A DNA stretch of 64,000 nucleotides from the NCBI GenBank assembly GCA_947632605.1, contig CANRPX010000002.1:1-64000 (forward strand). The letters run 5' to 3'. The position numbers and the translations under genes were made by a program. This document shows positions 20,280 through 35,304 of the stretch, piece after piece; within the stretch, counting starts at the first letter, position 1, and the number at the start of each line of letters is the position of its first letter. Source of the DNA: an uncultured Clostridia bacterium. GTDB taxonomy: Bacteria; Bacillota; Clostridia; TANB77; CAG-508. The notes beneath the pieces were generated by a model. That model saw only the letters and a list, made by a program, of their open reading frames with translations, searched no databases and was not told the origin of the DNA.

Positions 20280-20309
20280 TTGACTAAAGATATAAAAATA
20301 TGGTATAAT
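20280..20309 (+). promoter_or_regulatory. Promoter of the 117-residue foreign-looking gene
   Basis: TTGACT (20280-20285), 18 bases, TATAAT (20304-20309). The 5' UTR begins with GTGGAA...TTCCAC, a possible hairpin, before AGGAGG. Confidence 0.7.
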
Positions 20310-20388
20310 TAAAAGAGTGGAATTTTCCCTTAGGAGCTGATTTCCACCAAGAATGTACAACCGAAAATATGACAGGAGGAAACAAACA

Positions 20389-20742
20389 ATGGTAGTACAG
20401 CTTATTCGGTCCCCGGAAGCAAAGGATTTCATTATCAATGGGATCCGGACATTTTTTCTCAAGTTCTTTGATGAGGAATCCCTGAAGGAGTTCATGTACA
20501 TCAAAGCCTACTATGAGGCGAACTGTCTTGGCATTAATATCGAGGAGATGGAAGGAGGTTCTTATATGGTTCAGGACCTGAGGTCCAAAAAAATCGGTAA
20601 CGACTATGCGTGGGACATTCTCATGCACAAGTACTATGCCATGCAGAACTTCCCGAAAGAGGAAAACGGCGTGAAATACCGTCCGGTGATCTTCTCCAGC
20701 AGGCCCATTCCGGTTCTGGCTGAAAAAGTGATGGTCGGTTAA
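20389..20742 (+). CDS. Unknown 117-residue protein in a GC-richer unit
   Basis: The start is the ATG at 20389, preceded by AGGAGG 8 bases upstream. The product (MVVQLIRSPEAKDFIINGIR at the start) has no signal peptide, membrane segment or motif that I recognise. Its GC content and codon choice (many CGG, CCG, GAC, ATC codons) differ strongly from the neighbours. The unit has its own promoter, a possible hairpin (CACAGTGG/CCGCTGTG) in the 3' UTR and a strong GC-rich terminator. It sits between the ROK kinase terminator and the zeta-toxin gene, so it looks inserted. Confidence 0.65.
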   Translation: MVVQLIRSPEAKDFIINGIRTFFLKFFDEESLKEFMYIKAYYEANCLGINIEEMEGGSYMVQDLRSKKIGNDYAWDILMHKYYAMQNFPKEENGVKYRPVIFSSRPIPVLAEKVMVG

Positions 20743-20804
20743 GTCCGACAAAATCAGCTTCACAGTGGTAAGCAGTGCAAAAGTTTTCAAGCAAACCGCT
20801 GTGA

Positions 20805-20837
20805 CCCCCCGCCAATGAGGCGGGGGATTTCTTTTTT
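20805..20837 (+). terminator. GC-rich terminator of the 117-residue gene
   Basis: CCCCCGCC (20806-20813) and GGCGGGGG (20819-20826) form a perfect 8-bp stem, followed by a T-rich tail. Confidence 0.85.
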
Positions 20838-20841
20838 GAAT

Positions 20842-20878
20842 AAAAAAAGATATATCAAATTATTTTGATATATCTTCT
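20842..20878 (-). terminator. Terminator of the zeta-toxin-like gene
   Basis: AAGATATATCAAA pairs with TTTGATATATCTT across the stop region. On the minus strand a run of seven T residues follows. Confidence 0.7.
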
Positions 20879-21867
20879 TCTTTATTTGTATCTAAATTTG
20901 GAAGTGTATTTCTTAAATCAGAAAGTATAGTTTCATATAAACCTTGTGACTTTAGATAATCACTATTTGATTCTATAATATCTAATAGTTTTGCCATTCT
21001 ATTTGGATCAATTGATAAGTGAGAATGCATAATTTCACTTATACAAGTATATGCACAAGTTTCTGGTACAGGTGATTTTGTATCAAAAAGAAGGGTATCC
21101 TCTTCAAAATCAAAAATATCTTTATTTCTACGATACACTCTTATATCATCAAATATTCTTGCATTAGGATTATTGTGATAATCATCTTCAAAGAAACGTA
21201 CAGTTGATAAAAACTTTTTAATTGTATCATCATAATATTCTAAATCTGTATATCTTAAAGGTTCACTAGGATTACCTCTATATTTTACCATATTTAAGTA
21301 TCTTTCAAAAATAGAAAAAGCACTTTCTGTAACAGGTACTGCAAGTGTATATAATGAAACATGATATCTTGTTTTTGAATTATTTTTATAACGATTAACA
21401 ATTTCTCTTACCCAAGACAAATCTCTCATTGTTCCAGTTACAATTACATTTGTTCCAGCAAATTCTCTTAAGATTACTTCTTGTATAATATAATATAATT
21501 CATAAGAAGTAGGATTTGTTATTACAGCAAAATCTTTATCTGAAACACGAGTGTTTTCTCCAGTTATTGTATTGTGATAATGTCTAAACATATCCATATT
21601 TAATACTACAAAATTTTTATCTGGATTTTCAGATAATATTTTTCTAACAAATATATCTTTACCAGCACCAGTAGGAGCACCAAGAAAAATCATTTGTGCT
21701 TCTGGTGGAATAAGATTATTTGATGCAGATATTAATTTATAGTTAGTAATTATTTGAGCAATTAACTCTGCATGAGAAGCATTTAAATATCTTATATCTG
21801 GATTAATAGATTTTTCAGATTCTATAATTCTTTTAACTTTTAAAGTTAGTTCATCTAAATTATTCAT
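20860..21867 (-). CDS. Zeta-toxin-like P-loop kinase
   Basis: I take the ATG at 21867 as start because GGAG precedes it by 9 bases and it overlaps the stop of the upstream gene (ATGAATAA). The product has 335 residues. The P-loop GAPTGAGKD lies at residues 63-71, followed by VVLNMDMFRHYHNTITGE and VIVTGTMRDLSWVREIV, which fits zeta toxin/chloramphenicol phosphotransferase-type kinases. Zeta toxins phosphorylate UDP-GlcNAc and block wall synthesis. The residue after the P-loop lysine is Asp rather than Ser/Thr, which is unusual. Pairing with a small upstream gene supports a toxin-antitoxin unit, but the activity is unproven. Confidence 0.65.
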   Translation of the reverse strand: MNNLDELTLKVKRIIESEKSINPDIRYLNASHAELIAQIITNYKLISASNNLIPPEAQMIFLGAPTGAGKDIFVRKILSENPDKNFVVLNMDMFRHYHNTITGENTRVSDKDFAVITNPTSYELYYIIQEVILREFAGTNVIVTGTMRDLSWVREIVNRYKNNSKTRYHVSLYTLAVPVTESAFSIFERYLNMVKYRGNPSEPLRYTDLEYYDDTIKKFLSTVRFFEDDYHNNPNARIFDDIRVYRRNKDIFDFEEDTLLFDTKSPVPETCAYTCISEIMHSHLSIDPNRMAKLLDIIESNSDYLKSQGLYETILSDLRNTLPNLDTNKEEDISK

Positions 21868-22069
21868 TAATGAATTCTCCATATTTTTCATTTAATTTTT
21901 CTAAATCTTCAGTAGCTCCTTTATATAGTAATTGCTTATCAGCTAAGACATCTTGGAGTTCTCTTTTTAAAATTTCATTATTAGAATCTTTTGAAATTAA
22001 AATATTTAATTTAGCGATTTTTCTATTCAATTTTTCATTGATTAAAGTGAATAATATATTATTTTCCAT
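21860..22069 (-). CDS. Small helical protein, candidate antitoxin of the zeta-like gene
   Basis: The ATG at 22069, preceded by AAAGGA, gives 69 residues (MENNILFTLINEKLNRKIAK, then further lysine- and glutamate-rich helices). It looks like a coiled coil or helical bundle, as the epsilon antitoxins are, but it is shorter than the usual epsilon protein of about 90 residues and I see no direct sequence match. Its stop overlaps the start of the kinase by 8 bases, so the two are translationally coupled. Confidence 0.6.
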   Translation of the reverse strand: MENNILFTLINEKLNRKIAKLNILISKDSNNEILKRELQDVLADKQLLYKGATEDLEKLNEKYGEFINE

Positions 22070-22191: not shown

Positions 22192-22220
22192 TTGACAAAT
22201 AAGGGAAAAAATAGTATAAT
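22192..22220 (+). promoter_or_regulatory. Promoter of the RNase J gene
   Basis: TTGACA (22192-22197), 17 bases, TATAAT (22215-22220), a near-perfect consensus about 280 bases before the start codon. Confidence 0.85.
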
Positions 22221-22260
22221 ATTAAACAGTATTAATGAGATTTATAAAAATAAAAGTTTA

Positions 22261-22420
22261 AATATTTTAAAAATATTAAAAGTGTGCGGGTTAAAATTAA
22301 ATATATTTTTTAAATAAAAATAAAAAAATGAGAGAGAATTTTTATTTTAAGGTGCGTAATTTAAAAAATATATTATAAAATTTTTTAACATAAGTTGTTC
22401 GGTTTAACTTATGTTTTTTT
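22261..22420 (+). ncRNA. Structured RNase J leader with alternative stems
   Basis: The 5' UTR contains a hairpin at 22261-22277 and a perfect 16-bp stem (22300-22315 with 22359-22374). A competing stem (22312-22321 with 22338-22347) shares bases with it, and an intrinsic terminator follows at 22387-22420. A 16-codon open frame (22328-22378, MRENFYFKVRNLKNIL) lies inside but has no ribosome site. No Rfam family that I know matches. The layout suggests transcription attenuation of rnj. The rest of the 22070-22498 gap is AT-rich without other features. Confidence 0.5.
22387..22420 (+). terminator. Terminator within the RNase J leader
   Basis: AACATAAGTT (22387-22396) pairs perfectly with AACTTATGTT (22406-22415), running into seven T residues. 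It lies between the promoter and the gene, so it must be passed for RNase J to be made. Confidence 0.75.
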
Positions 22421-22465
22421 GGTGTTTAGCTTTTATATAAATTGAAAAATACAAAAGTAAAAGAA

Positions 22466-22501
22466 AGGAGAGTATATTAATTTAATATACAAAAAAGCAT
22501 G
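22466..22501 (+). promoter_or_regulatory. Ribosome site of rnj separated from AUG by a hairpin
   Basis: AGGAG (22466-22470) lies 28 bases before the ATG at 22499, too far for normal initiation. The gap contains a perfect 9-bp hairpin (GTATATTAA, one loop base, TTAATATAC, 22472-22490). If folded, it would leave about 9 unpaired bases between the site and AUG. A TAA at 22478 excludes an upstream start in this frame nearer the site, apart from a possible AUA at 22487. Confidence 0.45.
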
Positions 22502-24367
22502 GATAAAAATATTATTTCAAAAGAAAATGGAACTGTAAGAAAGAAAAAGTATCCTAATAAAACAAACTTAACGAAAAAAGAGAATAAGGTTGTTAAAAGA
22601 AAAACAAAAAATGTTTCAGTAAAAAAAGAAAACAAAAAAGTAATTGCAAAAAAGAATGTTAGTATTTTAGAAAAAGAATTATCTTTAGATTTAAAAGAGG
22701 GATTCACATTTAAAAAAGAAAATTTGAAAATTATTCCTTTAGGTGGAATTGAAGAAATCGGAAAAAACATAACTGTATTTGAATATGGAAATGATATTGT
22801 TTTAGTAGATTGTGGTGTAGCATTTCCAGAAGATGATATGCTTGGAATAGATTTAGTTATTCCAGATTTTAGTTATCTTGAAAAAAATAAAGAAAAAATT
22901 AGAGGATTAGTAATAACACACGGTCATGAAGATCATATAGGGTCAATAGCATATTTATTAAAACAAATAAATATTCCAATTTATGCTACTAAACTAACAA
23001 TAGGATTAATTTCAAACAAATTAGAGGAACATAAATTATTAAATACAGCAAAACTTAATGTAGTAAAACAAGGTCAAACCATTGTACTTGGAAAAATGAG
23101 AATAGAATTTATAAGAAGTTGTCATAGTATTCCAGACTCAGTTGCATTAGCTATTCATACACCAGTAGGAACAGTGGTTCATACAGGAGATTTTAAAATA
23201 GATTATACTCCAATAGATGATCAAAAAATAGATTTAGGAAGACTAGCAGAACTTGGAAATAGAGGAGTTTTAGCACTTCTTTCAGATAGTACAAATGCAG
23301 AAAGAAAAGGTTATACTATGTCTGAAAGTACAGTTGGAGAGGTTTTTGATAAATTATTTTCTAATTGTAAAAAAAGAATAGTTATAGCAACATTTGCTTC
23401 AAACATGCATAGAATTCAACAAATAGTTAATTCTGCAGTTAAAAATAATAGAAAAATTGCAGTATGTGGTAGAAGCATGATAAATATGATTCAAACTTCT
23501 GTTGAGCTTGGTTATGTAAATGCACCTAAAAATGTGTTCATAGATGTTGATATGATTAAAAATTATACTGATGAACAATTAGTTATAATTACAACTGGAA
23601 GTCAAGGTGAACCAATGTCTGCTTTAACTAGAATGGCAAATGGAGAGCATAAAAAAGTAAATATAAATTCAAATGATTTAGTTATAATTTCTGCAACTCC
23701 AATTCCAGGCAATGAAAAATTTGTATCAAAAGTTATTGATGATTTAATGAAAATAGGAGCAGAAGTTGTATATAGTGCATTAGCAGATGTTCACGTTTCA
23801 GGACATGCATGTCAAGAAGAACAAAAATTAATGCTTTCATTAGTAAGACCTAAATTCTTTGTACCAGTCCATGGAGAATATAGACAACTTATTGCACATA
23901 AAAATACTGCTAAATTAATGGGAATAGCAGATGAAAATATTATTTTATTAAAAAATGGTAGAGTATTAGAATTAAATGAAAATGAAGCAAAGCTTACAGG
24001 AAGTGTTCCTGTTGGAAAAGTATTTGTTGATGGATTAGGTGTAGGTGATGTTGGAAATATAGTTTTAAGAGATAGACAACATTTATCACAAGATGGTTTA
24101 ATTATAGTAGTTTTAACTATGGATTCAAGAGGAAATGTAGTGGCAGGTCCTGATATAATTTCAAGAGGATTTGTTTATGTAAGAGAATCTGAAAACTTAA
24201 TGGAAGAAGTAAAGCAGTTAGTAAATATTGAAGTAATGAAATGTGTAGATAATCACATAACAGATTGGTCTACAATAAAAACAACAATAAGAGATTCTTT
24301 AAGAGATTATATTATGCAAGCAACAAAAAGAAATCCTATGATTTTGCCAATAATTATGGAATTATAA
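22499..24367 (+). CDS. rnj: Ribonuclease J
   Basis: A 622-residue metallo-beta-lactamase-fold nuclease. After a lysine-rich extension of about 75 residues, the catalytic core begins (IIPLGGIEEIGKNITVFEYG). The metal motif HGHEDHIG lies near residue 141, the beta-CASP region near 290-400, and SGHACQEEQK and VPVHGEYRQL follow. RNase J has 5'-exonuclease and endonuclease activity and drives mRNA decay and rRNA maturation in Firmicutes. Usual members have about 555 residues; the difference is the basic N-terminal extension, which may contact RNA. The long leader suggests that the enzyme controls its own mRNA. Confidence 0.93.
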   Translation: MDKNIISKENGTVRKKKYPNKTNLTKKENKVVKRKTKNVSVKKENKKVIAKKNVSILEKELSLDLKEGFTFKKENLKIIPLGGIEEIGKNITVFEYGNDIVLVDCGVAFPEDDMLGIDLVIPDFSYLEKNKEKIRGLVITHGHEDHIGSIAYLLKQINIPIYATKLTIGLISNKLEEHKLLNTAKLNVVKQGQTIVLGKMRIEFIRSCHSIPDSVALAIHTPVGTVVHTGDFKIDYTPIDDQKIDLGRLAELGNRGVLALLSDSTNAERKGYTMSESTVGEVFDKLFSNCKKRIVIATFASNMHRIQQIVNSAVKNNRKIAVCGRSMINMIQTSVELGYVNAPKNVFIDVDMIKNYTDEQLVIITTGSQGEPMSALTRMANGEHKKVNINSNDLVIISATPIPGNEKFVSKVIDDLMKIGAEVVYSALADVHVSGHACQEEQKLMLSLVRPKFFVPVHGEYRQLIAHKNTAKLMGIADENIILLKNGRVLELNENEAKLTGSVPVGKVFVDGLGVGDVGNIVLRDRQHLSQDGLIIVVLTMDSRGNVVAGPDIISRGFVYVRESENLMEEVKQLVNIEVMKCVDNHITDWSTIKTTIRDSLRDYIMQATKRNPMILPIIMEL

Positions 24368-35049: not shown

Positions 35050-35240
35050 TGTAAATTTAAGGATAAACTTATCCAAAGTTCAGTTTCAAAAATAGGGTAA
35101 GTAAATTACTGATTAAACTTCTGTTTTAGTATTTCTACTAGTTTTTAATTTAATCTATGGTAGTAATCATACCACTAGAGCATCCGCCGAATATTTCGAT
35201 AACTCTAGACCTCGTCAACTATAAAAATAGTCCTGGCGCC
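35050..35240 (-). ncRNA. glmS ribozyme (GlcN6P-activated self-cleaving riboswitch)
   Basis: Read on the minus strand, the leader starts G-GCGCCAGGACTA at 35240, then GTTGACGAGG (35210-35219), TATCGA, and TTCGGCGGATG (35180-35190), all landmark sequences of the glmS ribozyme in the right order. Cleavage would fall between 35240 and 35239, before GCGCC. Glucosamine 6-phosphate activates cleavage, after which RNase J degrades the mRNA; RNase J is also encoded in this window. The 3' limit is approximate. Confidence 0.95.
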
Positions 35241-35304
35241 AACCTTTGTTTTAAATTTTCTCCTTTCTCAAATTACATACTTACAAAACACCTATTTCTA
35301 TATT

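What the first reader, a model, noticed from the sequence alone, without database searches (positions are those of the whole stretch)
22192..22420. Long attenuator-like leader in front of RNase J
A consensus promoter is followed by about 280 bases with a 16-bp perfect stem, a competing stem that shares bases, a small open frame inside the stem, and an intrinsic terminator before the gene. RNase E of E. coli is known to control its own mRNA through the 5' UTR; this layout suggests an analogous control of RNase J by premature termination.
Basis: partly seen in the sequence, partly recalled or inferred. Interest (0 to 1): 0.55.

Follow-up and report, generated by a model that had tools for sequence, protein, structure and literature searches.

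The report
Conserved RNA switch before RNase J
A long, conserved, structured RNA leader with a built-in stop signal sits in front of the gene for a key RNA-degrading enzyme in a group of uncultured gut bacteria; it probably lets the cell set how much of that enzyme it makes.

Summary
The anatomy is real. The window has a 12/12 promoter, a ~272-nt leader, a 16-bp perfect stem (0 of 300 shuffles) and a hairpin-plus-7-T terminator (1 of 200). The same kind of leader precedes RNase J in 117 leaders analysed, from 28 genera of one family of uncultured Clostridia. Its conserved parts are: (i) an element at the transcript start, ACAGUUGUUACC-loop-GGUAAAGAAGAGAUUUAU, with a covarying stem; (ii) repeated NNCGGA and GAGAU motifs, 6-7 times commoner than in shuffles and nearly absent before RNase Y; (iii) a terminator (68 of 117; 5% of shuffles); (iv) in many members, a long-range helix P1 that joins the promoter-proximal UGAUUCGGAAAAU motif to the terminator's base and overlaps it by a few bases, like an antiterminator. 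Strong matches to the element lie before RNase J. No Rfam family matches, and the papers searched do not describe it. The small open frames are not conserved. The window's own copy is a derived, AU-rich version in which P1 is not above chance. Control by premature termination is supported by comparison only. That RNase J itself is the sensor is inference, with a precedent in Helicobacter pylori. There are no expression data.

The parts
22192..22220 (+). consensus promoter, TTGACA - 17 - TATAAT
   Evidence: 12 of 12 matches; a TTGAC..TA...T promoter is found 100-650 bases before RNase J in 117 of the 125 loci processed, three of them placed by hand
22227..22246 (+). 5' element at the expected transcript start: CAG then UAUUAAUGAGAUUUAUA. 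In most other genera a hairpin UUACC/GGUAA lies between CAGU and AAGAGAU; here the hairpin is lost
   Evidence: GAGAU-type motif within 75 nt of the -10 box in 110 of 117 leaders against 11.6% of shuffles; alignment A1 and covariation of the hairpin in 52 relatives; 18 columns invariant in 14 close relatives
22265..22280 (+). degenerate copy of motif 1 (relatives: GUUCGGAAAAUAUUAAA; here UUUUAAAAAUAUUAAA), the promoter-proximal strand of helix P1
   Evidence: alignment A2; in the window its pairing with the terminator flank is weak, -2.8 kcal/mol
22282..22298 (+). second CGG motif GUGUGCGG followed by GUUAAAAUU, which can pair with 22383-22389 at the base of the terminator
   Evidence: alignment A2; duplex -4.7 kcal/mol, but no better than other segments of the same leader (rank 0.32); forced structure -25.7 against -27.4 for the terminator fold
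22300..22374 (+). 16-bp perfect stem (arms 22300-22315 and 22359-22374) closing an inner hairpin with apical loop GAGAGA (22330-22336) and the segment GGUGCGU (22351-22357)
   Evidence: equivalents of the arms, a GAGAU/GAGAGA loop and GGUGUGU seen by eye in close relatives; GGTGTG 31 copies in 117 leaders against 1.4 expected
22387..22420 (+). intrinsic terminator: stem 22387-22396 / 22406-22415, T-run 22414-22420
   Evidence: dG -9.2, 1 of 200 shuffles as good; terminators at dG -5 or better in 68 of 117 leaders against 4.9% of 468 shuffles
22463..22490 (+). Shine-Dalgarno GAAAGGAG (22463-22470) followed by a hairpin (arms 22472-22478 and 22484-22490) that fills the long gap to the ATG at 22499
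   Evidence: present in 20 of the 21 closest leaders looked at, absent in L066; 99.4% of cells paired, 3 of 9 pairs changed on both sides in 19 sequences
22499..24367 (+). RNase J gene (622 codons) with a lysine-rich N-terminal tail of about 75 residues
   Evidence: TIGR00649 680.9 bits, cut-off 400; Pfam RNase_J_b_CASP, RNase_J_C; translation

Best explanation
The leader is a cis-acting transcription switch for RNase J. Transcription starts at a strong promoter and makes a structured leader. If the promoter-proximal motif (UGAUUCGGAAAAU) pairs with the sequence just before the terminator (helix P1), the lower base pairs of the terminator next to the U-run cannot close and RNA polymerase reads into the gene; if P1 is absent, the terminator forms and a short RNA is released. 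Shown here, by comparison only: conserved promoter, 5' element, repeated motifs, terminator and P1 pairing. Inferred: that P1 and the terminator exclude each other in the cell, and the direction of the switch. Further inference, my preferred sensor: RNase J itself, which binds or removes the promoter-proximal half of the leader (5' element, GAGAU and CGGA motifs), so that surplus RNase J leads to termination and less RNase J.
For: Leader of this build before RNase J in 117 leaders, 28 genera. 5' stem: all 6 pairs changed on both sides somewhere, covariation score 0.327 against 0.178 shuffled, 0 of 500. Motif enrichment: CGGA 151 against 21.2, GAGAT 207 against 35.7, TCGGAAAA 51 against 0.6; in 20 upstream regions of RNase Y from the same family: CGGA 0, GAGAT 4. 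Terminators 68 of 117 against 4.9% of shuffles. P1: in 59 usable leaders mean duplex energy -6.56 with their own motif against -4.09 with motifs of other genera (Wilcoxon 2.5e-8) and -2.88 with other segments (4.5e-8); outside the window's genus 17 of 27 leaders have the flank as an exceptional partner (p 0.02 or better), in 10 of 13 genera. Overlap of 1-4 bases between P1 and terminator stem read. The element is tied to RNase J: 38 of the 41 model matches with E 0.003 or better lie within 700 bases upstream of it. Precedent for RNase J feedback acting through the rnj 5' UTR: H. pylori, PMC5874925 (passages).
Against: No expression data of any kind. 23 of 117 leaders show no terminator-like site by my rule and 49 of 117 none at dG -5. 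P1 fails in 10 of 27 leaders outside the genus, and in the window itself the pairing is no better than other segments (rank 0.32). Unguided RNAalifold on 14 close relatives found only the second terminator and the ribosome-site hairpin, not P1 or the 16-bp stem. In the window the terminator fold is favoured by 1.7 kcal/mol over the P1-like fold, and the latter still keeps 8 terminator pairs, so exclusion may be partial. Related sequences are not independent, so p-values are too small. Nothing here identifies the sensor.
Confidence: 0.5

Rival explanations
1. Same terminator switch, but the sensor is another RNA-binding protein that recognises the repeated NNCGGA and GAGAU motifs (several copies, some in hairpin loops).
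For: The motifs recur within one leader, keep their sequence beyond what pairing needs, and also appear in loops of the ribosome-site hairpin and terminator hairpin of relatives. 52 of 117 leaders hold two or more CGGA.
Against: The obvious GGA-binder, CsrA, was found in 0 of 40 family genomes. Motifs were not found before RNase Y, so a general RNA-decay regulator is less likely. No candidate protein named.
Confidence: 0.2
2. A riboswitch: the domain closed by P1 binds a small molecule or ion and thereby holds P1 and prevents termination.
For: P1 closing a domain with conserved unpaired motifs, directly followed by a terminator, is the common layout of riboswitches (established knowledge).
Against: The region inside P1 varies greatly in length and structure between members; two congeners (L054, L055) have lost most of it. 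No Rfam riboswitch family matched.
Confidence: 0.1
3. The 5' half is only a stability or processing element: the 5' hairpin and folded leader set the lifetime of the rnj mRNA (cut by RNase Y, trimmed by RNase J), and the terminator is a passive damper without regulation.
For: RNase Y was found in 40 of 40 family genomes (37 over the cut-off). RNase Y autoregulation by cleavage in its own 164-nt 5' UTR is published for B. subtilis (passages of PMC10303841). The motif region is AU-rich and single-stranded by prediction.
Against: Does not explain P1 pairing to the terminator flank.
Confidence: 0.15
4. The terminated leader is itself a functional small RNA, and RNase J expression is its read-through product.
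For: A conserved ~190-nt RNA with strong promoter and terminator.
Against: It is always tied to RNase J: no strong match elsewhere in the family genomes.
Confidence: 0.05
5. Leader-peptide attenuation through the small open frames.
For: ATGAGAT at the 5' end in 51 of 117 leaders and a 16-codon frame in the window's stem.
Against: 59 of the 110 leaders with the 5' motif have AGAGA instead of TGAGA there, so there is no ATG; where an ATG exists the peptide runs from 2 to 23 codons with no common sequence after MRF. The stem frame is not in relatives.
Confidence: 0.02

Closest known systems
RNase J autoregulation of Helicobacter pylori through the rnj 5' UTR (PMC5874925, passages)
   Same: Same enzyme family; expression of a 5' UTR fusion rises when RNase J is depleted, read by the authors as negative feedback on the 5' UTR
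   Different: Unrelated lineage; no terminator or leader structure is described in the passages I saw (no hit for 'attenuat' or 'transcription terminat' in the text)
RNase E (rne) autoregulation of E. coli
   Same: A ribonuclease gene with a long structured 5' UTR
   Different: In the passage seen (PMC10303841) RNase E binds a stem-loop of the rne 5' UTR to speed mRNA cleavage; no premature termination
RNase Y autoregulation of B. subtilis (PMC10303841, abstract and passages)
   Same: Ribonuclease of Gram-positives with a 5' UTR that serves its own control
   Different: Acts by cleavage of the mRNA; the RNase Y upstream regions of this family lack the motifs
Terminator-controlling leaders in which an upstream helix overlaps the terminator base (for instance the pbuE adenine riboswitch; recalled)
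   Same: Upstream helix shares bases with the terminator stem
   Different: Here the upstream strand lies near the 5' end, the inside of the domain is not conserved in length, and no ligand is known
Split ribosome-binding sites of phage T4 genes 25 and 38 (PMC3014915, passages)
   Same: A hairpin between Shine-Dalgarno and AUG shortens a spacing that is too long
   Different: Here in a bacterial housekeeping gene, conserved in one clade of one genus

Membership tests
Intrinsic (Rho-independent) terminator | hairpin followed directly by a U-run, stronger than chance | tested here: met
   window dG -9.2, 1 of 200 shuffles; 68 of 117 leaders against 4.9% of shuffles at dG -5. The G-C-based scanner did not call it
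Intrinsic (Rho-independent) terminator | releases transcripts | not testable with these tools
   needs transcription assay or RNA-seq
Transcription attenuator with antiterminator | a conserved alternative helix sharing bases with the terminator | tested here: met
   P1 in many relatives, statistics; overlap of 1-4 bases. In the window itself the pairing is not above chance
Transcription attenuator with antiterminator | read-through changes with a signal | not testable with these tools
   no expression data
Known Rfam family (release 15) | match at the family's gathering score | tested here: not met
   whole window: only glmS at 35101-35251; leader at E up to 10: two chance microRNA families
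Leader-peptide attenuator | conserved short reading frame | tested here: not met
Autoregulated ribonuclease leader (rne / rny / H. pylori rnj type) | linked to the ribonuclease gene it would control | tested here: met
   38 of 41 strong model matches lie within 700 bases upstream of RNase J; on the other 3 contigs one search found no RNase J
Autoregulated ribonuclease leader (rne / rny / H. pylori rnj type) | expression responds to the level of the enzyme | not testable with these tools
   needs depletion experiment
CsrA-controlled leader | CsrA present in the genome | tested here: not met
   0 of 40 family genomes; 3 of 14 control genomes rang
Split ribosome-binding site of the T4 gene 25 kind | conserved hairpin between Shine-Dalgarno and AUG | tested here: met
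   effect on translation not testable here

The most novel reading that the evidence does not exclude
A decay-capacity sensor: the antiterminator strand sits near the 5' end of the nascent leader, so that RNase J, a 5'-to-3' exonuclease, measures itself by eating or seizing that strand before polymerase reaches the terminator. Surplus RNase J destroys the antiterminator and shuts its own gene by premature termination. This would be a switch read out by degradation of the sensor RNA rather than by ligand binding.
Probability: 0.15. Interest if true: 0.85.

Novelty: new variant of a known kind. Interest (0 to 1): 0.6.

Why it matters
RNase J is a central RNA-decay enzyme of Gram-positive bacteria, and how its level is set there is little described: in the papers searched I found autoregulation of RNase J only for Helicobacter pylori. 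A conserved leader with named motifs, a terminator and a testable long-range helix gives a direct way to ask that question with reporter fusions, and it adds an orphan cis-regulatory RNA, absent from Rfam 15, in abundant uncultured gut bacteria.

Tried and rejected
Small open frames as leader peptides: rejected, not conserved.

A known RNA family (for example 6S RNA, suggested by the size): no Rfam match.

CsrA as reader of the CGGA motifs: rejected, no CsrA in 40 of 40 family genomes.

Mimicry of the 5' end of 16S rRNA (GAGAUUUAU against GAGAGUUUGAU), since RNase J1 matures that end in B. subtilis (recalled): 16S loci were found in 3 of 59 genomes and read; the likeness is short and I could not test it. 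Left as inconclusive.

A wider element beyond the family: model R1 in 291 class genomes gave 6 genomes outside the family at E 5e-4 to 0.044, about the chance level for 291 searches, none beside RNase J. By eye, RNase J leaders of order family f80 carry AATGAGATG (2 of 3 loci), and 6 of 8 leaders of f2 carry NNCGG motifs; not tested statistically.

The motif GTNCGGAAAATATTAAA in 53 congeneric genomes: 9 of 10 exact matches and 7 of 18 one-mismatch matches lie in the RNase J leader; the reversed control pattern matched 17 times, so the other 12 matches are at chance level.

Unguided consensus folding of the long leader: found two helices only.

Selection and dropped rows: leaders were taken mostly from the RNase J genes most similar to the window's, so the sample is not random. 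125 loci were processed, 8 dropped (L047, L048, L050, L114, L118, L125, L146, L151) because no promoter or start was found by rule, or the contig ended; L050 does carry the 5' element by eye. Genus labels were copied by hand. In the RNase Y control one of 20 regions was short (L247) and one start codon was not found (L245).

Full report
What was claimed and what is there. The gene is RNase J (TIGR00649 680.9 bits; Pfam RNase_J_b_CASP and RNase_J_C). The stem exceeds 300 of 300 shuffles and the terminator all but 1 of 200. The terminated leader as a whole is not more stable than shuffles (z -0.96); the full leader is (z -3.54).

Where it comes from. The genome is a metagenome assembly of 1.55 Mb. 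A pattern from the 5' end of the leader found 11 contigs in named species genomes, all uncultured Clostridia or Clostridium sp.; their lengths equal those of 11 contigs on which I had found RNase J leaders.

Conservation. RNase J was found in 48 of 53 genomes of the genus and 141 of 145 of the family (some are fragments). I fetched the upstream DNA of 40 congeners and 84 others and, with the window, processed 125 loci; 117 had a start codon and a promoter by rule or by hand. These 117 leaders, from 28 genera, open with a recognisable element: CAGU, a small hairpin, then AAGAGAUUUAU. A GAGAU-type motif lies within 75 nt of the -10 box in 110 of 117 leaders, against 11.6% of shuffles. In 52 aligned members the hairpin has two-sided changes at all 6 pairs (78.5% of cells paired; covariation score 0.327, shuffled 0.178, 0 of 500 as high; slid versions at most 0.151). 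In the window's own clade the hairpin is lost and the motif reads UAUUAAUGAGAUUUAUA.

Repeated motifs. CGGA occurs 151 times in the leaders (21.2 expected), GAGAT 207 (35.7), TCGGAAAA 51 (0.6), GGTGTG 31 (1.4). The upstream regions of RNase Y in 20 family genomes hold no CGGA, no GGTGTG and 4 GAGAT. The motifs are therefore a property of the RNase J leader, not of the genomes' composition.

Specificity. A covariance model of the 5' element (R1) run on 59 family genomes gave 41 matches with E 0.003 or better; comparing coordinates, 38 lie within 700 bases upstream of RNase J and the other 3 (G070, G078, G083) are on contigs where one search listed no RNase J. Some of these genomes supplied the model, so the test is of specificity, not of discovery. 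In 291 genomes of the class, 6 outside the family matched at E 5e-4 to 0.044, none next to RNase J. No Rfam family fits.

Terminator. A hairpin with a U-run at dG -5 or better is found in 68 of 117 leaders and in 4.9% of 468 shuffles; 23 leaders have none by the rule. Two recurrent types are visible: AUUAGUUUAA..UUAAACUAAU-U6 in many genera and UAGUCUA..UAGGCUA-U6 in the window's genus. The window has lost the second and uses a CAUAAGUU/AACUUAUG hairpin that relatives also carry.

P1. The sequence just before the terminator is complementary to the promoter-proximal CGG motif. In other genera UAAUGAUUC pairs with GAAUCAUUA, UAAUGGUUC with GAAUCAUUA, GAUUGAUUC with GGAUCAAUU, UUGAUUC with GAGUCAA; in the window's genus UCGGAAAAUAUU pairs with AAUAUUUUCUGA, and L053, where the motif has become UUUAAAAA, has UUUUUAAA as flank (by eye). 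In 59 usable leaders the duplex with the own motif averages -6.56 kcal/mol against -4.09 with motifs from other genera and -2.88 with other segments of the same leader. Outside the genus 17 of 27 leaders give p 0.02 or better against other segments of the same leader, from 10 of 13 genera; 10 of 27 do not. In the genus alignment of 14 leaders the four helices named (P1, CAUAAG hairpin, terminator, ribosome-site hairpin; 35 pairs) have 7 pairs changed on both sides against 3.2 shuffled (0 of 500); P1's inner 10 pairs are 90.8% paired, its outer 2 only 57.7%. P1's downstream strand runs 1-4 bases into the terminator stem, at the end next to the U-run. That is where closure is needed for termination (established knowledge), so P1 would act as an antiterminator; this step is inference.

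The window's copy. Motif 1 has decayed to UUUUAAAAAUAUUAAA and the pairing with the flank is weak (-2.8; the second motif -4.7), no better than other segments (rank 0.32). The terminator fold is -27.4 and the P1-like fold -25.7 kcal/mol, the latter keeping 8 terminator pairs. The window is thus a derived member, and the case rests on its relatives.

Ribosome-binding site. In 20 of 21 close leaders a hairpin stands between GAAAGGAG and the ATG, 99.4% paired with 3 of 9 pairs changed on both sides in 19 sequences. T4 genes 25 and 38 have the same arrangement, where the hairpin shortens the spacing (passages of PMC3014915).

Mechanism. The best reading is a terminator-antiterminator switch for RNase J. 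The sensor is unknown; I favour RNase J itself because the element is tied to that gene, because a precedent exists in H. pylori (5' UTR fusion activity rises 1.3- to 1.4-fold on RNase J depletion; passages of PMC5874925), and because the antiterminator strand lies near the 5' end where a 5'-to-3' exonuclease would act first. CsrA is excluded by absence.

Literature. Six searches gave listings; I read passages of PMC10303841, PMC7283877, PMC12096830, PMC5874925 and PMC3014915, and searched PMC8040213, which has no mention of RNase or ribonuclease. None of these describes an RNase J leader with a terminator. The library lacks most subscription journals, so this is not proof of absence.

Verdict. 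Observation confirmed; the attenuation idea gains comparative support; autoregulation remains a good guess. A new orphan cis-regulatory RNA of a known general kind.

Noticed in passing
window 35101-35251 (-): glmS ribozyme, 76.5 bits, the only Rfam family over its gathering score in the window.
   Followed up: no
window 20860-21891 (-) and 21863-22066 (-): A Zeta-toxin-like protein (Pfam Zeta_toxin 68.1 bits) with a 68-residue frame of no known family just upstream of it, divergent from the RNase J promoter; perhaps a toxin-antitoxin pair.
   Followed up: partly
window 22472-22490 and relatives: Hairpin between Shine-Dalgarno and AUG of a housekeeping gene, with compensatory changes, confined to the window's close clade; other congeners have ordinary spacing.
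   Followed up: yes
window 22239-22247 with 22433-22441: The 5' GAGAUUUAU motif can pair with AUAUAAAUU close to the ribosome site (in the minimum-energy fold of the full leader); both strands are nearly invariant in 14 relatives, so no covariation test is possible.
   Followed up: partly
L079-L086, leader ends: In one group of congeners the 5' hairpin UUAUCAAUUUUAUUGAUA has a look-alike AAUUGAUACG next to the Shine-Dalgarno, so the 5' arm could pair at either end: a possible second switch acting on translation.
   Followed up: no
G086 contig C3 35886-37403 and 37648-39510: In this relative the RNase Y gene lies directly upstream of the RNase J leader and gene.
   Followed up: no
window 22499-22720: RNase J of this family has a lysine-rich N-terminal tail of variable length and sequence, as seen in the translations of the window and the varying query starts; it could bind RNA.
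   Followed up: no
window 20284-20815: Overlapping long frames on both strands around 20353-20742, with no Pfam match for the + strand one; looks unlike the surrounding AT-rich sequence.
   Followed up: no
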